Shown here: positions 30,906 through 52,705 of the stretch, in pieces
Layout of the letters: each line of letters starts with the position of its first letter
Position numbering within the stretch: the first letter of the stretch is position 1
Assembly: GCA_002701365.1 (NCBI GenBank)
Contig: NZUK01000017.1
Span: 1-53,883, forward strand
Reading direction: 5' to 3'
Length of the DNA stretch: 53,883 nucleotides
Source: Flavobacteriales bacterium
GTDB taxonomy: Bacteria > Bacteroidota > Bacteroidia > Flavobacteriales > TMED113
Translations under genes and position numbers: made by a program
The notes under the pieces: generated by a model
Databases searched by the model: none
The model's input: the letters and a program-made list of their open reading frames with translations, nothing else
Told to the model about the DNA's origin: nothing

Positions 30906-33677
30906 ATGGATTACAACTTTAAAAAAATTGAAGCAAAATGGATAAAGTATTGGAAAGAAGAAAATACTTATCTGGTTCAGGAAGATACTGATCAAAAAAA
31001 ATATTATATTCTAGACATGTTCCCCTATCCTTCCGGGTCAGGTTTACATGTGGGGCATCCCTTGGGATATATCGCTTCAGATATTTATACAAGATATAAA
31101 AACTTAAACGGATTTAATGTATTGCATCCAATGGGATATGATTCATTTGGTTTGCCTGCAGAACAATATGCCATTGAAACAGGTCAGCACCCGGAAACAA
31201 CAACTAAAAAAAATATTAAACGCTATAGAGAACAACTGGATAAATTAGGTTTTTCATTTGATTGGAGTAGAGAAATCCGAACTTCCGACCCTTCTTATTA
31301 CAAGTGGACTCAGTGGATTTTTAAGCAATTATTTAATTCATACTATTGTCATATAGAGAATAAAGCGTTTCCTTTATCAAAATTAATTGAAGAATTTGAA
31401 AGAAATGGAAATAATAATGTGAAGTCTCCATGTGATAACGACACACCTATTTTTAGTTCCGGTGAATGGGGAAATTTTAGTGAAAAGAAACAACAAAATA
31501 TTTTACTAAAATATCGGTTAGCTTACTTGTCTGATACATGGGTAAATTGGTGCCCAGAATTAGGTACTGTGTTAGCAAATGATGAAGTAAAAGATGGATA
31601 TTCTGAAAGAGGTAATTTCCCAGTTGAACAGAAAAAAATGCAACAATGGTCATTGCGGATTACTGCCTACTCAGACCGTCTTTTAGCTGATTTAGAAAAT
31701 TTAGATTGGTCTGATTCAATAAAAGAAATTCAAAAGAATTGGATAGGAAAATCTCAGGGAGCTACTGTTAATTTTTTAACAGAAGAAAATAAGATTAGTA
31801 TTGAAGTGTTTACAACAAGACCTGATACAATATTTGGGGTCTCTTTTTTAGTTCTTGCACCTGAACACCAATTAATTAATCAAATAACTACAGAGAAAAA
31901 TAAAATTAACGTGGAGCAATACCGGAAAATAGCTGGTTTAAAATCCGAAAGAGACCGACAATCCAATATTAAAAATATAACAGGTGTTTTTACAGGCTCA
32001 TATGCGTATCATCCTCTTACAAAACAAAAAATTCCAATTTGGATTTCTGATTATGTTCTAGCGTCATACGGATCAGGAGCAATAATGGGTGTTCCGTGCG
32101 GGGACCAAAGAGATTGGGACTTTGCAAAGAAATTTAAATTAAAAATACCAAATATCTTTAAAAATAATAATGTAAGTGAAGGTGCACAAATAGATAAAGA
32201 TGCAATTATTGCTAACTCTGATTTTTTAAACAATTTAAAAACAGATTTAGCGATTGAAGAAGCTGTAAAAAAAATTGAAGAACTGAAAATTGGAAAATCA
32301 AAAATAAACTATAAAATTCGTGATGCTGTTTTTAGTAGGCAAAGATATTGGGGAGAACCATTCCCTATATACTATAGTGATAATATACCCTTATTAATAG
32401 AGTCTGATATCTGCGTTAAATTACCTTTAGTTGATAAATACTTGCCAACAGAATCTGGTGATCCACCTCTTGCAAGGGCACAAAAAAAAGACTGGAATAT
32501 ATATATGGGTGATCGTATGGAATATAATACAATGCCTGGATGGGCTGGCTCATCTTGGTACTTTTTAAGATTTATGGATCCTAAAAATGACAAATGCTTT
32601 ACATCAAAAAAAGCAATGAATTACTGGGGGCAAGTCGATTTGTACATTGGTGGCGCCGAGCATGCCGTGGGCCATTTACTATATTCTAGATTCTGGACAA
32701 AGTTTCTATTTGACTTAGGGCATATTAATTTTGAAGAGCCATTTAAAAAGCTTATCAACCAAGGTATGATTTTAGGGCGATCAAGCTTTATTTACAGGGT
32801 AAAAAAAACTAATAAATTTGTAACGTACGAAGAGCGAGAGAAGTATGAAACAAGTAAAATGTATGTTGATATAGAACTTGTGGATAATGATATTTTAAAT
32901 ACTGAAAAATTTAAAAAGTGGCGATCTGAATTTAAAAATGCTGAATTTATACTAAATAAAAACGGGGATTATCTATGTGGATTTGAAGTAGAAAAAATGT
33001 CTAAATCTAAATACAATACTCAAACGCCAGATAAACTAATTGATCGTTTTGGCGCTGATACACTCAGGATGTATGAAATGTTTCTAGGACCGTTGGAACA
33101 ATATAAACCTTGGGATACAAAAGGAATTAATGGTGTGCATAATTTTCTAAAAAAATTCTGGAAACTAATCCATAATAATAAAAATGAATTTATTGTATCT
33201 GATTTAGATCCTACTAACGAAGAATATAAAATAATTCATGCGTGTATTAAAAAAGTTTCAGAAGATTTAAGTCGATTTACATTTAATACTGCTGTAAGCG
33301 CATTTATGATTTGCATTAATGAATTAACAAATTTAAAATGTAATAAAAGAAAAATAATCACACCTTTTATTATTATTCTATCACCTTACGCCCCTTATAT
33401 TACTGAAGAAATCTGGCAAAAATTAGGAAACAGTGACTCAATATATAGTGCTAATTGGCCTAATTTTGAAAAAAAATATCTAGAAGAAAAGAACTATACA
33501 TATCCTGTGTCTTTTAACGGCAGAATGAGATTCAAGCTAGACTTATCACTTGATTTAAGTAAAGATGAAATTGAAAAAATAGTATTATCTAACCCTAAAA
33601 CACAATCTTATTTATTAGAAAATAAAATTAAGCGAATTATAATTATTCCAAATAAGATAATAAATATTGTTTTTTAA
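30906..33677 (+). CDS. leuS: Leucyl-tRNA synthetase
   Basis: A 923-residue class I enzyme that charges tRNA-Leu. The HIGH motif is in PYPSGSGLHVGHPLGY, and the KMSKS motif in EVEKMSKSKYNTQTPD. The editing domain is recognisable around residues 290-430 (FTTRPDTIFGVSFLVLAPEH; YGSGAIMGVPCGDQRDWDFA). A lineage-typical insertion lies near residues 150-200. Its substrate gene family, tRNA-Leu, has one member in this window (5564-5647). A three-copy 21-bp tandem repeat begins 6 bases past the stop. Confidence 0.97.
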   Translation: MDYNFKKIEAKWIKYWKEENTYLVQEDTDQKKYYILDMFPYPSGSGLHVGHPLGYIASDIYTRYKNLNGFNVLHPMGYDSFGLPAEQYAIETGQHPETTTKKNIKRYREQLDKLGFSFDWSREIRTSDPSYYKWTQWIFKQLFNSYYCHIENKAFPLSKLIEEFERNGNNNVKSPCDNDTPIFSSGEWGNFSEKKQQNILLKYRLAYLSDTWVNWCPELGTVLANDEVKDGYSERGNFPVEQKKMQQWSLRITAYSDRLLADLENLDWSDSIKEIQKNWIGKSQGATVNFLTEENKISIEVFTTRPDTIFGVSFLVLAPEHQLINQITTEKNKINVEQYRKIAGLKSERDRQSNIKNITGVFTGSYAYHPLTKQKIPIWISDYVLASYGSGAIMGVPCGDQRDWDFAKKFKLKIPNIFKNNNVSEGAQIDKDAIIANSDFLNNLKTDLAIEEAVKKIEELKIGKSKINYKIRDAVFSRQRYWGEPFPIYYSDNIPLLIESDICVKLPLVDKYLPTESGDPPLARAQKKDWNIYMGDRMEYNTMPGWAGSSWYFLRFMDPKNDKCFTSKKAMNYWGQVDLYIGGAEHAVGHLLYSRFWTKFLFDLGHINFEEPFKKLINQGMILGRSSFIYRVKKTNKFVTYEEREKYETSKMYVDIELVDNDILNTEKFKKWRSEFKNAEFILNKNGDYLCGFEVEKMSKSKYNTQTPDKLIDRFGADTLRMYEMFLGPLEQYKPWDTKGINGVHNFLKKFWKLIHNNKNEFIVSDLDPTNEEYKIIHACIKKVSEDLSRFTFNTAVSAFMICINELTNLKCNKRKIITPFIIILSPYAPYITEEIWQKLGNSDSIYSANWPNFEKKYLEEKNYTYPVSFNGRMRFKLDLSLDLSKDEIEKIVLSNPKTQSYLLENKIKRIIIIPNKIINIVF

Positions 33678-33683
33678 AATACT

Positions 33684-33745
33684 AAAATTGATTAAAACGC
33701 AAGAAAATTGATTAAAAACGCAAGAAAATTGATTAAAAACGCAAA
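33684..33745. repeat. Three tandem copies of a 21-bp unit after leuS
   Basis: Units AAAATTGATTAAAACGCAAG (33684-33703, one A shorter), then a 21-base copy at 33704-33724 and another at 33725-33745, differing only in the A-run and the last base. They fill most of the gap between leuS and the DUF3108 gene. No hairpin or promoter motif is evident within the unit. Confidence 0.9.
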
Positions 33746-33793
33746 AAAACAAACAATAATCTACATAAATTATAAATAATAAAAACTAATTAA

Positions 33794-34606
33794 TTGGATG
33801 AATTAATTTCATTTTTTTGTAAAAAAAAGCTGCTTTTTTATGCTTTTTTATGCTTTTTTATGCTTTTTGGAGCAAAATCTTTTGTTTTTGGGGATTATTT
33901 AAATAAAGTGGACAGTAAAATTACACTAAACGAATCTTATAGATCTGGTGAGAAATTAAAATATAAAATATCTTATGGCAAACAAAATAAAAAAAGCGGG
34001 GGACTAATCGCAGGCAACGCAACATTAACCGTACATGAAGTTGAACTCAATGACAATCAGCTCTTTCAACTCAATGCCTTTGGAAAAACCACGAGATTTT
34101 TTAGTATCTTTCTTAAGGTTAATCACCGCTACCAATCTTTTATAAAAAATTCAACCATGCAAACTGTTAAATCTAGCATGAATATACAAGAGGGCAACTT
34201 TAAAAACTCTGTTGAAACTGTTGTAAATGAGCACAAGTCAATACTATCATCATCAAGCAATGACATTCTTGGCTCTTTATATCGATTGCGGTCCACGCCC
34301 AATTATAAAATTCTGAATTTAGATACCATTTTTTTTTCATACTATTATAATAAAGATATTTATGAATCTTATGTTGTAAACTATGGTGAGGAACTTATTG
34401 AGACAAAGTTTGGCAAATTAAGAACCATTAAACTTTTAACAAAACTTGAAAAAGGACGCTTATTTAAGGAAAACACGGAAGCTATTGTTTGGGTTACAAA
34501 TAATGCCCTCCATATTCCAGTTAAATTAGAAATACCAATTCTTGTTGGATCTATTTATGTCAACCTAGTGTCTTATAGCGGCACGTTATATAATTTAAAT
34601 GAATAA
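33794..34606 (+). CDS. DUF3108 exported protein with a repeat-containing signal peptide
   Basis: The 270-residue protein begins with a signal peptide (SFFCKKKLLFYAFLCFFMLFG), then a beta-rich DUF3108 domain: YRSGEKLKYKISYG, HRYQSFIKN, RTIKLLTKLEKGR, and a closing IPVKLEIPILVGSIYV. DUF3108 proteins are periplasmic and of unknown role. The only start that keeps the full signal peptide is a TTG at 33794, directly after a stop codon; an in-frame ATG at 33860 would lose it. The hydrophobic core is encoded by 10-base repeats (33831-33868). It is followed by the dioxygenase and M23 genes, a common flavobacterial trio. Confidence 0.8.
   Translation: MDELISFFCKKKLLFYAFLCFFMLFGAKSFVFGDYLNKVDSKITLNESYRSGEKLKYKISYGKQNKKSGGLIAGNATLTVHEVELNDNQLFQLNAFGKTTRFFSIFLKVNHRYQSFIKNSTMQTVKSSMNIQEGNFKNSVETVVNEHKSILSSSSNDILGSLYRLRSTPNYKILNLDTIFFSYYYNKDIYESYVVNYGEELIETKFGKLRTIKLLTKLEKGRLFKENTEAIVWVTNNALHIPVKLEIPILVGSIYVNLVSYSGTLYNLNE
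33831..33868 (+). repeat. 10-bp tandem repeat inside a signal-peptide coding region
   Basis: TGCTTTTTTA occurs three times in a row (33831-33860) and a fourth time as TGCTTTTT (33861-33868). As the unit is not a multiple of three, the copies are read in three different frames (LLF, YAFL, CFF, MLF), and gain or loss of a unit would shift the frame between the TTG start and the rest of the DUF3108 protein. ATG triplets arise at each junction (33840, 33850, 33860), one per frame. Confidence 0.9.
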
Positions 34607-34679: not shown

Positions 34680-35657
34680 ATGAAAGACGAAAAATTATTA
34701 AAAAAAATAGCTCAACTATCAGAAAAATACTCCGCCACAGGCCAAGATATTTATTCCTTCTTAGAAGGTCTTCTATATTCTGACTACATGGGCTACTGGG
34801 ATTATATTCATCTGGATACATTATTATCTTTACAAAATCCTAAAACTGACTTTCCCGATGAACAAATATTTATTATTTATCACCAAATAACAGAGTTATA
34901 CTTTAAGCTTTGCCTGTCTGAACTTGAGCAAATAAATAAAAACGGTAAAAAAATACTAGACTCCGGTGAAGACCTAGGATGGAACGAAAAACTATCTGTT
35001 GAATTATTTATTGATAAACTTCAAAGAATAAATCGCTATATAAAACATCTGATCCATTCTTTTGAAATAATGGTCAGTGGCATGGAAAAAAATCAATTTC
35101 TGAAATTTCGGATGGCCCTTTTACCCAGTAGTGGGTTTCAAAGCGTTCAATATAGAATGATCGAAATAAGATCTACTGATATTGAAAATTTAATTGCTCA
35201 TAAAAGTTCTAGAAATACACAATCTATTAATGCTAAATTTGAAAACCTCTATTGGAAACTTGGAGCACGCGACCTAAAGTCTGGCAAAAAAAGCTATACA
35301 CTATTACAATTTGAAAAGAAATACCAAGAACGTCTTCTTAAACTGGCAAACAAAGCTCAGAACATGAATCTATGGCAAAAATATATCTCCCTCAGCAAAG
35401 TCAATCAAAAAAATGAAAAATTAATTCAACTGATGCGAGAGTATGATGTAAATATTAACGTAAACTGGAAACTTGCCCACTATAAGTCAGCTGCTAAGTA
35501 TTTAAAGAAAAGTCATAAAGACATTGCTGCAACCGGCGGAACTAATTGGCAAAAATATCTACCTCCTACATTTCAAAAAATTATTTTTTATCCGAAGCTA
35601 TGGACAACAAAAGCAAAACAAGAATGGGGGAAGGAGTGGGTTAAATCTATTATATAA
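34680..35657 (+). CDS. Tryptophan 2,3-dioxygenase family protein
   Basis: A predicted haem dioxygenase that opens the indole ring of tryptophan to N-formylkynurenine. Of the residues known from Xanthomonas TDO, all can be matched: the substrate His68 in IIYHQITELYFK, Tyr158/Arg159 in SGFQSVQYRMIE, the haem-ligand His267 in WKLAHYKS and Thr285 in ATGGTNW. Length, 325 residues, is slightly above bacterial TDO. It lies between DUF3108 and an M23 lipoprotein, with its stop codon directly abutting the M23 start, so its neighbours are envelope genes and not kynurenine-pathway genes. Confidence 0.85.
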   Translation: MKDEKLLKKIAQLSEKYSATGQDIYSFLEGLLYSDYMGYWDYIHLDTLLSLQNPKTDFPDEQIFIIYHQITELYFKLCLSELEQINKNGKKILDSGEDLGWNEKLSVELFIDKLQRINRYIKHLIHSFEIMVSGMEKNQFLKFRMALLPSSGFQSVQYRMIEIRSTDIENLIAHKSSRNTQSINAKFENLYWKLGARDLKSGKKSYTLLQFEKKYQERLLKLANKAQNMNLWQKYISLSKVNQKNEKLIQLMREYDVNINVNWKLAHYKSAAKYLKKSHKDIAATGGTNWQKYLPPTFQKIIFYPKLWTTKAKQEWGKEWVKSII

Positions 35658-38869: not shown

Positions 38870-39619
38870 TTATTTTTTTTGAAGTTCAAAAAGTAAAGGG
38901 CGACTTGGCGAAGCGTCATTTTGAAAAGGAACGAATTGAAGGTTTAACAAATAATATCCATCTGCAACTTCATTAGGAACATATATTAATTCTGTAATTG
39001 TACTACCATTTCGTTTTTGTGCTGGCAAACCCCAAAAAGCTTTATGGGCAGACAATTTACCTTCATCTTTCTCCCTATCAACAGACGGCAAGTCTATTAA
39101 AAGATGCTTAATATTTAAGTTCGCTATGTGCTCTGCTGCACTTTTTAACAAAAACGGAGGATTAGTATTTGAATAATTCTTTGAAATCTTGTTTTCTGTA
39201 TTTGGTAAAGTTCTAATAACTAACGCATCAATATTTTCATTTTTCAGCAATTTTTGATCTATGATTGATCTTGTGATTACACAATCTTTATTATGTTTTT
39301 TGGGCATTATGCTAATTAATTTAGCAATGAAAAAAAATTGTCTTAACTCATTGTTTAATGACTCTTTATCCTTTGTAATGTGACCAAGACATTCTGTGTG
39401 TGTTGCGTGCGCATGAGGATTAAATAAAATATTGTTAAAATTGACTGCCGAACCCGCCTCTACATCACCAATCCAGCCATCTAGGCTTACTGGACTAATT
39501 GAAACATCTGGCATATTCCAGGCGCCAACCCCACCCGACTTAATTGGTATAGAAATATCTATAGGTCGCATTAAATCCGAAGTGTATTGATGATTATTAT
39601 GTGTTATACTTACTAACAT
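38870..39619 (-). CDS. Cyclase family protein (kynurenine formamidase-like fold)
   Basis: This 249-residue protein resembles the cyclase/KynB metal-hydrolase family. The N-terminus reads PIDISIPIKSGGVGAWNMP and the metal-site segment is FNPHAHATHTECLGHIT, a variant of the HxGTHxDxPxH pattern; a second conserved block is HLLIDLPSVDREKDEGKLSAHKAFWG. The substrate is unknown. Because a tryptophan dioxygenase-family gene lies 3.2 kb away, N-formylkynurenine is one possible substrate, but the genes are on opposite strands and the motif differs from true KynB. Confidence 0.7.
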   Translation of the reverse strand: MLVSITHNNHQYTSDLMRPIDISIPIKSGGVGAWNMPDVSISPVSLDGWIGDVEAGSAVNFNNILFNPHAHATHTECLGHITKDKESLNNELRQFFFIAKLISIMPKKHNKDCVITRSIIDQKLLKNENIDALVIRTLPNTENKISKNYSNTNPPFLLKSAAEHIANLNIKHLLIDLPSVDREKDEGKLSAHKAFWGLPAQKRNGSTITELIYVPNEVADGYYLLNLQFVPFQNDASPSRPLLFELQKK

Positions 39620-47430: not shown

Positions 47431-47451
47431 ATGTAACTAATGCCCCTTGAT

Positions 47452-50400
47452 ATGAAAAAAATATTTTTATTTATCATGATATCATATTGTTGTGTTGCTC
47501 AATCAGATAATGTATGCGACTCAATATCTATCACAATTAATGACTATGATTCAATTAATAACACTGTTAATATTCAAGTTAATGTGGAATACTATTCTTC
47601 TTACATTTTTCCATATGCCGGATTTATGATTACCAACGAAACCGATGATATAATTGCTTCTGAATCATTGGAATCTGCTGCCAATGTATACGGATTAAGT
47701 TCTGGCATGTCAGAAAATAGAGTTCTAGATCTAAATGGGAACGCTTCACTGACTGGGAGTAGCACTATACATTTAGTAAGTTATTTATTTGCCGGAACAC
47801 CAATCGTAGAGTGTTCATGGCCATTTTATTATCCAGAGATGTTTACGAACATACCTGATGATAATTTTGAACAATACTTAATAAGCGAAGGCCTGGACAA
47901 TACCCTGGATAATTACGTATTAACTAACAATATTAATTCTGTTACAGAACTTGAATTATCCGGCTTAGAGATATTTGATTTAACTGGGATTGAAGCATTT
48001 ACTGCATTAGAATCATTAAATTGTTCTGAAACAGAGTTATCTGAATTAAACATAGATAACAATAATTTATTAACATATTTAAATTGTTCGTCTACAAATA
48101 TATCTGATCTAGATTTAGACAATAATACATCTCTTTTAAATTTAGACTGCAGTAATAATAGTATACTTGATCTGGATTTGAGCAGCAATAATTCAATCAT
48201 AAATCTAGATTGCAGTAATAATAATATATCTGATCTAGATTTAAACAATAACTTATCTATGCAGAGTATTTCATGTAATCAAAACAACTTGTCTCAACTA
48301 GACCTCTCAAGTAATACTTTATTAAATAGTATTTTTTGTCAAAATAATAATATTGAATGCGTTCAAGTTGCTAGTCTTATATATGCTAATATAAATACAC
48401 AGGATTTCATTAAAGATGATTCTGCTATATGGTCTGAAGATTGCAATTATCCACCTGCAACACCTTTTCAAGGTATTATAGTAGAAGAAATTGAAAACAA
48501 TAACAATGTCGATGGACAAACGTATAGATTATATGCTAAAATTAATGAAGGTCGACTCAATGGATATTGGGCAAATGAAAATAATGATTCATATATTCAA
48601 TCATCTACAAACTTTTATGTTGATCAAGCTAATTTGTGGGGTAATTTGCCAGATGAAATCGAAAATAAAAAAGTGCAAAGAGGTATAGATACTACCATTT
48701 TTGACAATACTCCTTCGTCTGAATTTACTAGTTGGCTCACATTAGGTGACAGTTATAATTCAGGAACAACAACGTGTCCATATAATGCTGTGTTTCACAA
48801 ATCCCAAAATTTTAACCTTGGTGTAAGTGAAGATGGTACTGAATACTTATTGAAATATAATGGGACCGATGGAGAGTCTGGATTTGTTAAACTCGCTGAA
48901 ACAAACTACAATTATATAAATAGCAATTACATGTATTATAGTTCCGATTCCGAAAATGGATGGTTCCCATATGCCGGAAATCCTAATGGATTGGTTCAAG
49001 GGGAATACTGCGAAAGCACCGTTGCTTACCCTGATGAAAATAATTTAGTATTATTATTTCAAATGACAACTACTGGTTCGATTTGTGGATTAATTAACCT
49101 AGAGGGAGAGGATGCTAATGGAAACCCCTGGAGCGAAAGTGGAATAGATTTTTTAATTGCAAACGGAAATTTAACAAACTGTGATGGCGAATGCATCACG
49201 GACCTTGATGATGACCTAATTTGTGATGAAATTGATGAATGCGTTGGTGAATTTGATGAATGTGGTACTTGCAATGGCAATGGACCCGAATTATACTATG
49301 ACTGCAACTGGAATTGTATCAATGATGCTGATGGGGACGGTTGGTGTGATGAAATAGAAATAGAAGGTTGTTTTGACCCTGTGTCTTGTAATTATAATTT
49401 ATTAGCAACTGACATTATATGTATATATCCTGAAGAGGGATTTGATTGCGATGAAGTCTGTATACTAGACCTAGACGAAGATGGTATTTGTGACCCCATT
49501 GATGAGTGTGTTGGTGAATTTGATGAATGTGGTGATTGCAATGGAAATGGACCAGAATTATATTATGACTGCAACTGGAATTGTATAAATGATTCTGATG
49601 GTGATGGAACATGCGATGAATATGAGATTATCGGATGTATGGACTCAAATGCCTGCAATTATAACAGTGCTGCAACTGATGATGATTTATGTGAATATGC
49701 CAATACATGTGCCTATGGAAGTGGGACGTGGATGATGGAAAATTATCCAGGGCCTGAAGCAACTATTTATGCTACAGGAGAAAATTGGTCTTTAAGTCCT
49801 ACTACCCTATCTTATGAAACAAGTAATATTGGTTGGTATACTGCTGTTTTTGAAGATGGACAATTAATATCAGACTGTTACACTGGACCTGTTAATATTT
49901 ATATTGAATACAATACGTCTATTGACTCACTGGGATCAACAAGTATTATAGGTGATATTATTTTTACAATATCAAATAGTAGTGGAGCTAGTGCGGTTAG
50001 TGTTACCACAGTAAGTTCACTAGATCTATTAACCGGCACTATTTCAGGGGGAATAGAGTCTTTTAGCTGCGAAACATGCTCAGGTGAAACAGATGGGACT
50101 GGTTTTATTATAAATAACGACACCAATAACAATGGTGTTTGCGATGATGATGAAGCCTTCGGATGCACATATGAAATGGCTTGTAATTATCTTGATGTAG
50201 CAATTACTGATGATGGTAGTTGTGAATTCCCTGGCGATGAATGTATTTTACCAGGTAGTTTAGGGCCTGACTTTGATTATGGTATTTTTAACTCCGACTG
50301 TGAGTGTGTTGAAAACAATACTGGCCTAATTGAGCAAGTTTCTTCTAAAAGAATTATTGCTATTATAGATGTTCTTGGCAGGGCTCAAGCCGCAGACAAT

Positions 50401-50466
50401 AAAGGCATGTTATTTTTATATATTTTTGATGACGGATCCATTGAAAAAACATACATAACTAAGTAA
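47452..50466 (+). CDS. Large secreted LRR and Cys-rich repeat protein with type IX-like C-terminus
   Basis: A 1004-residue surface protein. Order: signal peptide (MKKIFLFIMISYCCVAQ), N-terminal domain (about 20-130), LRR segment (about 135-310; cap NFEQYLISEGLDNTLDNYVLT, then 21-residue repeats like LDCSNNNISDLDL), a beta domain of unknown type (about 340-575), two near-identical 89-residue Cys/Asp-rich modules (DECVGEFDECGTCNGNGP), further GCxDxxACNY modules, and a C-terminus IDVLGR...FLYIFDDGSIEK resembling a type IX sorting tail. Likely bound to or released from the outer surface; ligand unknown. The start at 47452 is preferred over 47440 by the promoter position. Confidence 0.85.
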   Translation: MKKIFLFIMISYCCVAQSDNVCDSISITINDYDSINNTVNIQVNVEYYSSYIFPYAGFMITNETDDIIASESLESAANVYGLSSGMSENRVLDLNGNASLTGSSTIHLVSYLFAGTPIVECSWPFYYPEMFTNIPDDNFEQYLISEGLDNTLDNYVLTNNINSVTELELSGLEIFDLTGIEAFTALESLNCSETELSELNIDNNNLLTYLNCSSTNISDLDLDNNTSLLNLDCSNNSILDLDLSSNNSIINLDCSNNNISDLDLNNNLSMQSISCNQNNLSQLDLSSNTLLNSIFCQNNNIECVQVASLIYANINTQDFIKDDSAIWSEDCNYPPATPFQGIIVEEIENNNNVDGQTYRLYAKINEGRLNGYWANENNDSYIQSSTNFYVDQANLWGNLPDEIENKKVQRGIDTTIFDNTPSSEFTSWLTLGDSYNSGTTTCPYNAVFHKSQNFNLGVSEDGTEYLLKYNGTDGESGFVKLAETNYNYINSNYMYYSSDSENGWFPYAGNPNGLVQGEYCESTVAYPDENNLVLLFQMTTTGSICGLINLEGEDANGNPWSESGIDFLIANGNLTNCDGECITDLDDDLICDEIDECVGEFDECGTCNGNGPELYYDCNWNCINDADGDGWCDEIEIEGCFDPVSCNYNLLATDIICIYPEEGFDCDEVCILDLDEDGICDPIDECVGEFDECGDCNGNGPELYYDCNWNCINDSDGDGTCDEYEIIGCMDSNACNYNSAATDDDLCEYANTCAYGSGTWMMENYPGPEATIYATGENWSLSPTTLSYETSNIGWYTAVFEDGQLISDCYTGPVNIYIEYNTSIDSLGSTSIIGDIIFTISNSSGASAVSVTTVSSLDLLTGTISGGIESFSCETCSGETDGTGFIINNDTNNNGVCDDDEAFGCTYEMACNYLDVAITDDGSCEFPGDECILPGSLGPDFDYGIFNSDCECVENNTGLIEQVSSKRIIAIIDVLGRAQAADNKGMLFLYIFDDGSIEKTYITK
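49192..49725 (+). repeat. Tandem 267-bp in-frame duplication within the LRR surface protein
   Basis: Two 89-codon units (49192-49458 and 49459-49725) encode nearly the same Asp/Cys-rich module, including DECVGEFDECG-CNGNGPE and LYYDCNWNCIND. Differences are mostly silent or conservative within the core. Asp-rich DxDxDG stretches (DADGDGWCD, DSDGDGTCD) look like calcium-binding thrombospondin-3-type repeats. Confidence 0.85.
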
Positions 50467-51067: not shown

Positions 51068-52705
51068 ATGAAGAAATATATTCTTATTTGTATAATTCCA
51101 ATCCTGTCATTTGCACAAGAAACAACATTTATATTAGATTCTAATTTTGAACAACTTCTAATTGATTGGGGATATGATGAAACCCTAGATAATTATGTTT
51201 TAACTGAAAGTATTGATACTATTACAACACTTGAAATAGCTGGTTATGAAATTTCTGACTTAACAGGCTTAGAAGATTTTTCTAATCTGACCTATTTATA
51301 CTGCTACTCAAATAACTTGTCTGAACTAAATGTATCAAATAATGTACTGTTACAACATTTATATTGTAGCAATAATAACTTATCTGAATTAGAATTATCT
51401 AATAATGCTGCCTTAACTTATTTATCATGTGACAATAATAATATAAGCGCACTAAACTTATCTAACAACCCTGAACTTGTATCTTTCATTTGTTTTGATA
51501 ATAATATCTCTGAATTAAATTTATCTAGCAATCCGGAGCTAACAACTGTTTCATGTGACAATAATAATTTATCGGGAATAGACTTGTCCAACAATCCTAA
51601 TCTAACATATTTAAATTGCTTTAACAATAACATCTCCGAACTAGACTTATCCACTAGTAATCTATTATCAGATTTATATTGCTACTCTAACAACTTATCT
51701 GAATTAGACATTTCAAATAATACTCAGTTAAAAAATATTAACTGTGCTTCTAACAATTTATCATTTCTAAATACATCCTTTAACGCCATGCTAACATATT
51801 TAAATTGTAGCTGGAATGATTTATCAACAATAAGTGTGGGGAATAATACTCTACTAAACCATTTATCTTGTTATGGAAACATGATATCTGAATTAGACCT
51901 GTCTAATAATACCGCATTAACTGATTTATATTGTTATTTAAATAATCTTTCTAATCTAAATGTCTCTAATAATAACCAATTAAATAATTTATGGTGTTAC
52001 GATAATAATATCGATTGCGTAGAAGTCTGGGATTTAAATAATGCTATCTACTCTCAGTCATGCGAAAGTGATAATAATTGCTTTAAAAAAGATGACGATA
52101 CTGTTTGGTCATTAAATTGTAACTGCCCGCAAGATGAAGTCTCATTGACACTATATTGGGAAAATGGTTTAAATACAAATTTTAATGTTGAAGGTGATAT
52201 TAATGGTTTGCTCTTCTCGGACTCATTGACGACTGATAGTGGGTTTTTAACTGCTTGCTGGCCTATTAACTTGCAGGCTGATTGTTTCACCATTGACATT
52301 GAAAGTAACGAAGATTTTTTGTGGCAATTTTATTCACAAGATATACTAATTTTAGAAGGTACTAATGAAACCATAGTGTTTGGAGTAGAGTGTGCAAATG
52401 GTTGTATGGATATAAACTCTTGTAACTACGATTTAAATGCATTAGTTGATGATGGGTCTTGTTTAAATCCGGGAGACGAATGTGTTTTAGAAGAAAACAC
52501 TGGTGATGATTTTGAATATGGGATTTTAGACGAAAATTGTGATTGCATAAATACATTAAACATTTTTGAAGAGCCTAAAAAAACAAAACAATTATTAAAT
52601 ACGATTGATGTTTTAGGTAGACAAAGCAATCAAGTAATTCCAAGTACTAAAATACTATTAAACATCTATCATGATGGTAGTGTAGAAAAATTATATAAAT
52701 TTTAA
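51068..52705 (+). CDS. Secreted leucine-rich-repeat protein with Cys ladder and type IX-like C-terminus
   Basis: A 545-residue paralogue of the larger protein upstream. After a signal peptide (MKKYILICIIPILSFAQ), the cap NFEQLLIDWGYDETLDNYVLT leads into about 12 LRRs of 21 residues (LTYLSCDNNNISALNLSNN), nearly all with Cys or a similar small residue at one fixed position. Then come a small beta domain (about 355-440), a GCMDINSCNYDLNALVDDGSC module, PGDECVLEENTGDDFEYGI, and a tail LLNTIDVLGRQ...LLNIYHDGSVEK as in the upstream protein. It starts 6 bases after the previous gene. Confidence 0.85.
   Translation: MKKYILICIIPILSFAQETTFILDSNFEQLLIDWGYDETLDNYVLTESIDTITTLEIAGYEISDLTGLEDFSNLTYLYCYSNNLSELNVSNNVLLQHLYCSNNNLSELELSNNAALTYLSCDNNNISALNLSNNPELVSFICFDNNISELNLSSNPELTTVSCDNNNLSGIDLSNNPNLTYLNCFNNNISELDLSTSNLLSDLYCYSNNLSELDISNNTQLKNINCASNNLSFLNTSFNAMLTYLNCSWNDLSTISVGNNTLLNHLSCYGNMISELDLSNNTALTDLYCYLNNLSNLNVSNNNQLNNLWCYDNNIDCVEVWDLNNAIYSQSCESDNNCFKKDDDTVWSLNCNCPQDEVSLTLYWENGLNTNFNVEGDINGLLFSDSLTTDSGFLTACWPINLQADCFTIDIESNEDFLWQFYSQDILILEGTNETIVFGVECANGCMDINSCNYDLNALVDDGSCLNPGDECVLEENTGDDFEYGILDENCDCINTLNIFEEPKKTKQLLNTIDVLGRQSNQVIPSTKILLNIYHDGSVEKLYKF

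What the first reader, a model, noticed from the sequence alone, without database searches (positions are those of the whole stretch)
33831..33868. 10-bp tandem repeat in the signal-peptide codons of a DUF3108 protein: possible phase switch
TGCTTTTTTA is repeated almost four times between the TTG start and the mature protein. Because 10 is not divisible by 3, slipping by one copy shifts the frame. Checking the upstream frames by eye, losing one copy meets a stop before the repeat, and gaining one copy leaves no usable start (the only ATG there, at 33798, is followed by a stop two codons later). So only the present copy number (or one differing by three) makes the full signal peptide. An in-frame ATG at 33860 would make a leaderless cytoplasmic form, so a slip could switch the protein between exported and retained.
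Basis: partly seen in the sequence, partly recalled or inferred. Interest (0 to 1): 0.55.

Follow-up and report, generated by a model that had tools for sequence, protein, structure and literature searches.

The report
Helix-phased A/T-tract element at gene start
The repeat is real, but it is one piece of a roughly 200-base stretch in which runs of A or T recur once per turn of the DNA helix; related marine bacteria keep that rhythm at the same gene start even where sequence, repeats and signal peptide differ, so it looks more like DNA architecture than an on/off switch.

Summary
The 10-bp array (33831-33868, 3.8 perfect copies) is real and lies in the signal-peptide codons of a TTG-started DUF3108 gene. 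The frame arithmetic is right for losing a copy, wrong for gaining one: every third in-array ATG is in frame. Comparison points elsewhere. In all 11 family genomes that hold the gene (12 searched), A/T tracts around the leuS-DUF3108 junction (about -80 to +140) are phased at 10-10.75 bp; these 11 sites are the top 11 peaks in 1.17 Mb sampled. This includes five species without near-perfect repeats, and it persists although block DNA is barely more alike than shuffled DNA (68% vs 66%). 68 orthologues outside the family lack it. Codon choice and Phe-rich signal peptides are tuned to it. Units of 10 or 21 bp (one or two turns) look like one way of building it. Best reading: a helix-phased A-tract (curved or wrapping) DNA element, probably a nucleoprotein site at this operon boundary. 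Partner and function are unknown; wedge models disagree on net bending. A phase switch is not excluded, but no copy-number data exist.

The parts
33680..33900 (.). Helix-phased A/T-tract element (about 200 bp), in two arms
   Evidence: Peak 120-bp window 33778-33897 and 200-bp window 33676-33875, both the best of 759 kb sampled; AA/TT autocorrelation 0.50 against 0.23 for the next locus. The two-block fit splits at about 33774 with phase difference 164 degrees.
33684..33749 (+). Upstream (A-rich) array, 21 bp x3.2 = two helical turns per unit; non-coding gap after leuS
   Evidence: TRF; the unit occurs only here in the genome at up to 2 mismatches
33831..33868 (+). Downstream (T-rich) array, 10 bp x3.8 = about one helical turn per unit; inside signal-peptide codons; ATGs at 33840, 33850 and 33860
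   Evidence: TRF, sequence, frame table
33794..34606 (+). DUF3108 gene (PF11306), TTG start, predicted signal peptide MDELISFFCKKKLLFYAFLCFFMLFGAKS (by eye; no signal-peptide predictor was available)
30906..33677 (+). leuS, upstream neighbour; a LeuS C-terminus precedes DUF3108 in all 11 family genomes that have the gene
34680..35657 (+). tryptophan 2,3-dioxygenase family gene, downstream neighbour
   Evidence: PF03301
35658..36956 (+). M23 peptidase gene, downstream neighbour
   Evidence: PF01551

Best explanation
The tandem repeat is part of a roughly 200-bp DNA element, straddling the leuS/DUF3108 boundary, whose A/T tracts (4 or more bases) recur once per helical turn (10-10.75 bp). SHOWN: the phasing is conserved in all 11 family genomes that have the gene, independent of repeats, of coding status and of sequence; synonymous codons and amino acids of the signal peptide are biased towards it. 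INFERRED: the unit of selection is DNA shape, i.e. an intrinsically curved or easily wrapped DNA scaffold for a nucleoid protein or gyrase-like wrapper, which most probably tunes transcription of the DUF3108 operon or anchors local chromosome structure. Duplicating one (10 bp) or two (21 bp) turns extends the element without losing phase, which would explain why arrays with these periods arose in several species; in coding DNA such arrays survive only when they also keep the frame.
For: A-tract periodogram over the leader: mean R 2.1-2.2 at P=10 and 10.5, each of the 11 above the background 95th percentile at some P of 10-10.75; background mean 0.77-0.79. Density-matched background windows with leaders excluded have no 10.5 peak. 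The top 11 amplitude peaks of 1.17 Mb are the 11 leaders, 52.0-67.9; next 45.5. Top locus also in 160 kb of G001:C16 and 200 kb of G003:C3 and in 759 kb of G000. AA/TT autocorrelation oscillates through lags 10, 20-21 and 30-31 in the leader and is flat in both flanks. 0 of 68 non-family leaders exceed 33.7. Observed phasing exceeds the mean of synonymous recodings in 11 of 11, p<0.05 in 8 of 11, Stouffer z 5.8. Phe in the first 35 aa 7.5 against 3.4 in 362 other signal/TM-like ORFs, p=8e-7. Block DNA identity 0.68 against 0.66 shuffled.
Against: Net bending is model-dependent. In the Bolshoy-type wedge model (parameters recalled, small-angle) the leader is outside the top ranks in most genomes (G000 rank 60, G001 rank 171 at 120 bp); an AA-wedge-only model ranks it first in 7 of 11 at 80 bp and 6 of 11 at 120 bp. 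In G010 another locus beats the leader on autocorrelation, 0.26 against 0.23. Amplitudes of about 50 occur at unrelated loci in two non-family genomes. The best windows were chosen to maximise the signal, so its permutation p values are optimistic; G002 gives p=0.13 in the tract/gap permutation. No protein, transcript or phenotype is known.
Confidence: 0.62

Rival explanations
1. Slippage-prone contingency locus: copy-number changes of the 10-bp array switch the DUF3108 protein between exported, poorly exported and leaderless forms.
For: Non-triplet unit in coding DNA; in-silico ON/OFF states; G002 and G008 carry comparable non-triplet arrays in the same codons. The arrays are perfect although the species' proteins are only about 46% identical, so copies must turn over on evolutionary time. 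Near-perfect arrays in 6 of 11 DUF3108 leaders against 5 of 880 other leaders.
Against: No variation data. Five of 11 orthologues have no near-perfect array yet keep the helical phasing. Arrays upstream of or at the start codon mostly do not alter the frame. 3.8 copies of 10 bp is a short array. A signal-peptide array with a period other than 3n is absent in 8 of 11.
Confidence: 0.18
2. Promoter-type tuning: the phased tracts act as UP-element or curved-promoter DNA, and unit gain or loss shifts axial alignment as a rheostat for DUF3108 operon transcription.
For: Element sits at a gene start. A T-tract rheostat that works by axial alignment is known at H. pylori sabA (PMC4081817, abstract and outline seen). 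Curved DNA is often associated with promoters (PMC3940949, passages).
Against: No exact Bacteroidetes-type promoter match at the element in any of 11 genomes, at best 9 of 10 letters at scattered places (motif recalled); sigma-70-like sites no more than in shuffles, 3 against a mean of 5.6. The element extends about 100-140 bp into the gene, and in G008/G010 DUF3108 overlaps the leuS stop.
Confidence: 0.35
3. Family-specific strong gyrase-like wrapping site: two helically phased arms around a central node, as in the E. coli gyrase motif.
For: The E. coli gyrase motif has two 47-bp arms with 10.75-bp periodic GC content around a 36-bp centre, and strong sites such as Mu SGS exist (PMC6379681, passages). 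Here two arms with a phase offset of 152-171 degrees in magnitude are fitted in G000, G001, G002, G004 and G005.
Against: Arms are further apart and the whole is longer (about 200 bp against 130 bp). The fit gives 114 degrees in G006, 58 in G007 and -170 in G003 with a weak left arm; G008, G010 and G011 are essentially one block. No cleavage motif was tested.
Confidence: 0.15
4. Conserved mRNA leader structure (A-rich arm pairing with U-rich arm) that controls translation.
For: In G002 and G006 parts of the A-rich and T-rich blocks are mutually complementary by eye (sequence).
Against: Folding energies of the 11 leaders are not below dinucleotide shuffles: z from -1.77 to +1.22. No Rfam match at E<=1.
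Confidence: 0.04
5. Neutral by-product of AT-rich signal-peptide codons and replication slippage.
For: Phe (TTT) and Lys (AAA) codons give T and A tracts; GC of the block is 0.19.
Against: Density-matched A-tract-rich windows of the same genomes show no 10.5-bp periodicity; other leaders rarely have arrays (5 of 880); the phasing covers non-coding gaps and exceeds synonymous recoding.
Confidence: 0.08

Closest known systems
A-tract clusters / intrinsically curved DNA of bacterial nucleoids (Tolstorukov et al. 2005, seen only as a reference; PMC3940949 passages; PMC3431218 listing)
   Same: A/T runs phased at 10-11 bp over 100 bp or more, coding or non-coding
   Different: Known clusters are described as a genome-wide statistical signal; here one locus far above the sampled background is kept at one gene junction through a family and shapes a signal peptide
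E. coli gyrase motif and strong gyrase sites (PMC6379681, passages)
   Same: Two helically phased arms with a centre; indirect readout
   Different: Longer, wider arm spacing, in several species a single block; no gyrase data
Simple-sequence-repeat contingency loci, e.g. H. pylori sabA T-tract rheostat (PMC4081817, abstract and outline)
   Same: Repeats at a gene start of an exported protein; T-tracts; phase/axial alignment
   Different: 10- or 21-bp units, part of a larger phased element; no demonstrated variation
DUF3108 (PF11306) exported proteins
   Same: Family hit E=2.6e-21; Burkholderia members described as outer-membrane beta-barrels with a YmcC fold, PDB 3FZX (PMC4364669, passage)
   Different: The profile of these Flavobacteriales sequences matched no solved chain at E<=1

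Membership tests
DUF3108 (PF11306) | Pfam profile score above gathering cut-off | tested here: met
   76.8 bits against cut-off 26
Phase-variable SSR contingency locus | Non-triplet repeat in the reading frame with in-silico ON/OFF states | tested here: met
   the +1/+2 states keep an in-array ATG
Phase-variable SSR contingency locus | Copy number varies within a population or between strains | not testable with these tools
   no reads; one genome per species; the viral-contig scan gave nothing and genome contigs gave one congener
A-tract cluster / curved DNA | A/T tracts phased at 10-11 bp above matched background | tested here: met
A-tract cluster / curved DNA | Predicted net curvature extreme for the genome | tested here: inconclusive
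   AA-wedge model rank 1 in 7 of 11 at 80 bp; Bolshoy-type model not
A-tract cluster / curved DNA | Anomalous gel mobility or cyclisation | not testable with these tools
   needs bench work
Strong gyrase site | Two ~47-bp arms of 10.75-bp periodicity about a ~36-bp centre | tested here: inconclusive
   two arms with near-half-turn offset fitted in G000, G001, G002, G004, G005, but longer, and not in all genomes
Strong gyrase site | Gyrase binding or cleavage | not testable with these tools
   no data
oriC or terminus | GC-skew switch at the locus | tested here: not met
   no consistent switch at the locus in G001:C16, G003:C3 or the window; noisy 5-kb steps

The most novel reading that the evidence does not exclude
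A chromosomal DNA-wrapping landmark, anchored at one gene junction through a bacterial family, is under selection for helical phase strong enough to rewrite the protein it overlaps (Phe-rich signal peptide, tuned codons) and to recruit one- and two-turn tandem duplications repeatedly; it may be a dedicated site for a nucleoid protein or gyrase.
Probability: 0.3. Interest if true: 0.82.

Novelty: new variant of a known kind. Interest (0 to 1): 0.6.

Why it matters
The role of helically phased A-tracts in bacterial chromosomes is described as unclear (PMC3940949, passages). Here is one locus where the signal is outstanding in the DNA sampled, conserved by position and not by sequence across a family, and where coding sequence gives way to it. 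That makes the question testable at a single site: what binds it, what happens if the phase is broken while the protein is kept, and why repeats of 10 and 21 bp keep arising there.

Tried and rejected
RNA leader structure: rejected. oriC/ter: no consistent GC-skew switch. Sigma-70-like and Bacteroidetes-type promoters, terminator: nothing above chance or exact. Using the 3-prime end of the A-run as reference point, to see whether the two arms would come into phase: no, the tract centre (or slightly beyond) is best. Natural experiment in G009 (family member without a DUF3108 hit): its best match to part of LeuS is only 34% identical, E=1.8e-8, so the junction is probably missing from that assembly and it says nothing. 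Relatives in viral contigs: none. Solved-structure search with the family profile: none at E<=1. Papers on flavobacterial phase variation: one unrelated hit. Structure prediction was not run, as the protein fold does not decide the question.

Errors of mine: locus L028 was labelled G028 but is a duplicate of G027; it was dropped before the count of 68. One search stopped with a script error after printing two genomes and was repeated. One search read minus-strand loci in the wrong orientation; one search repeated them correctly. Background did not exclude the leaders themselves; one search did.

Full report
OBSERVATION. The array is as described: 33831-33868, unit TGCTTTTTTA, 3.8 copies, 100% matches. 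It lies in the 5-prime codons of a 270-aa ORF that starts with TTG at 33794 and ends at 34606; the protein is DUF3108, PF11306, E=2.6e-21. A 23-base stretch of the array is unique to this place in the whole genome. A second array, 21 bp x3.2, lies at 33684-33749 between leuS and the gene, also unique at up to 2 mismatches.

FRAME LOGIC. With one or two copies fewer, only the ATG at 33860 is in frame, giving a leaderless form. With one or two copies more, an in-array ATG three units upstream is in frame and gives a hydrophobic leader without the lysine-rich n-region; with three more the full leader returns. The TTG frame is supported by alignment with relatives, e.g. FFKKK before the hydrophobic stretch in G004.

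RELATIVES. The family holds 12 genomes; 11 have the gene, each behind a LeuS C-terminus. Near-perfect arrays (>=95% match, >=2.4 copies, score >=50) lie in 6 of these 11 leaders: G000 21 bp and 10 bp; G001 10 bp x6.5; G002 10 bp x3.5 and 10 bp x4.5; G004 12 bp x2.4; G006 21 bp x4.9; G008 11 bp x2.7. Among 880 other leaders in 1.17 Mb sampled from the same 11 genomes there are 5 (all 11 orthologues are in that set of 891, Fisher p=3e-10, which ignores relatedness). Outside the family 0 of 68 leaders (67 genomes, of 87 non-family genomes with a match) have an array with score >=50. G001 is a marine MAG, Flavobacteriales bacterium SAT135.

WHAT IS COMMON. Periods of 10, 21 and 11 bp suggested the helical repeat. 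Taking every A-then-T run of four or more as a tract, all 11 leaders show a periodogram peak at 10-10.75 bp (R 2.2-3.5 at the best period), including the five without near-perfect arrays; tract-rich background windows average 0.77-0.79 there. With leaders excluded and tract density matched, background has a slight dip, not a peak, near 10.5 bp. In 120-bp windows the top 11 peaks of all 1.17 Mb are exactly the 11 leaders (52.0-67.9; next 45.5). It is the top locus in 160 kb of G001:C16 and 200 kb of G003:C3 and in 759 kb of G000. AA/TT autocorrelation, which needs no tract definition, oscillates through three periods in the leaders and is flat in both flanks; in G000 it scores 0.50 against 0.23 for the next locus among 24,994 windows. 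Exception: in G010 the leader is second in 20 kb (0.23 against 0.26). Non-family leaders reach at most 33.7, median 23. Two non-family genomes have amplitudes of about 50 at unrelated loci, so amplitude alone is not exclusive to this element.

ANATOMY. The element runs from about -80 to +140 of the start codon; in the window about 33680-33900. In G000, G001, G002, G004 and G005 it is fitted as two arms whose tract centres differ in phase by 152-171 degrees; G003 gives -170 with a weak left arm, G006 114, G007 58 in the fit (though its local phases at -60 and +40 differ by about 200), and G008, G010 and G011 look like one block. Coding and non-coding parts both take part: the leuS-to-start gap ranges from -4 to 116 bp.

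SELECTION. Pairwise DNA identity in the block is 0.68 against 0.66 for shuffled blocks, so the phase is kept while the sequence turns over. Observed phasing in the first 141 coding bases exceeds the mean of 1000 synonymous recodings in 11 of 11 genomes, p<0.05 in 8 (G000 0.052, G008 0.093, G004 0.317), Stouffer z 5.8 treating genomes as independent. Recodings in turn exceed residue-shuffled versions, so the amino acids carry part of the phase. Phe count in the first 35 residues is 7.5 against 3.4 in 362 other signal/TM-like ORFs, Mann-Whitney p=8e-7.

MECHANISM. Phased A-tracts are the classical signature of curved DNA (PMC3940949, passages), so the most likely job is a curved or easily wrapped scaffold for a nucleoid protein, affecting transcription at this boundary or local chromosome structure. 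Shown: phasing, conservation, codon and residue bias. Inferred: bending, binding, regulation. Against simple bending: a Bolshoy-type model with recalled parameters does not single the site out (G000 rank 60, G001 rank 171 at 120 bp), while an AA-only wedge model ranks it first in 7 of 11 at 80 bp and 6 of 11 at 120 bp. PMC7537859 (abstract only) argues that much genomic periodicity is selected without bending. The two-arm form recalls the gyrase motif (PMC6379681, passages), but length and spacing differ.

ROLE OF THE REPEATS. A 10-bp unit is about one turn and a 21-bp unit two turns; duplicating either extends the element in phase. In the non-coding gap that is free. In codons a 10-bp unit is tolerated only in steps that keep the frame, and the array in G000 is now in frame. 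Because the arrays are perfect while the congeners' proteins are only 45-46% identical, copies must turn over in time, so frame-changing slips can be expected; whether they are used is unknown.

NOVELTY. Helix-phased A-tract clusters are known. I found no description of one conserved at a gene junction through a family and overriding a signal peptide; searches: DUF3108 (4 papers), phased A-tracts with promoter and coding region, A-tract clusters with nucleoid, DNA curvature with start codon and orthologous, curved DNA with Flavobacteri. The library is partial and only listings were seen for most hits.

Noticed in passing
window 48097-48251 and 51425-51651: Longer tandem arrays (63 bp and 126 bp) in two ORFs; the second ORF (51068-52705) is a leucine-rich-repeat protein (PF12799), the first (47440-50466) has no Pfam hit.
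   Followed up: partly
window 34680-35657 and 38870-39619: A tryptophan 2,3-dioxygenase family gene and a putative cyclase gene (PF04199; kynurenine-formamidase-like is my guess) lie 3 kb apart, possibly a tryptophan breakdown set.
   Followed up: no
L005, L006 and window 33794: All three members of the genus (G000, G001, G002) start DUF3108 at TTG with no upstream in-frame ATG, while the other family members have ATG; in G001 and G002 the TTG lies in an array of AAAATTGA-containing units.
   Followed up: partly
L011, L013: In G010 and G008 the DUF3108 ATG overlaps the leuS stop codon (gap -4), suggesting one transcript.
   Followed up: no
L039 1-147; L045 11478-11569: Arrays (12 bp x12.2; 21 bp x4.4) at contig ends of the same genome, probably where assembly broke.
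   Followed up: no
L215 6662, L212 8251, L216 11494: Phased A-tract peaks at unrelated loci in two non-family genomes (an intergenic stretch after a kynurenine-3-monooxygenase-like ORF, a start region of a 1178-aa ORF, and inside a tilS-like ORF; names by eye).
   Followed up: partly
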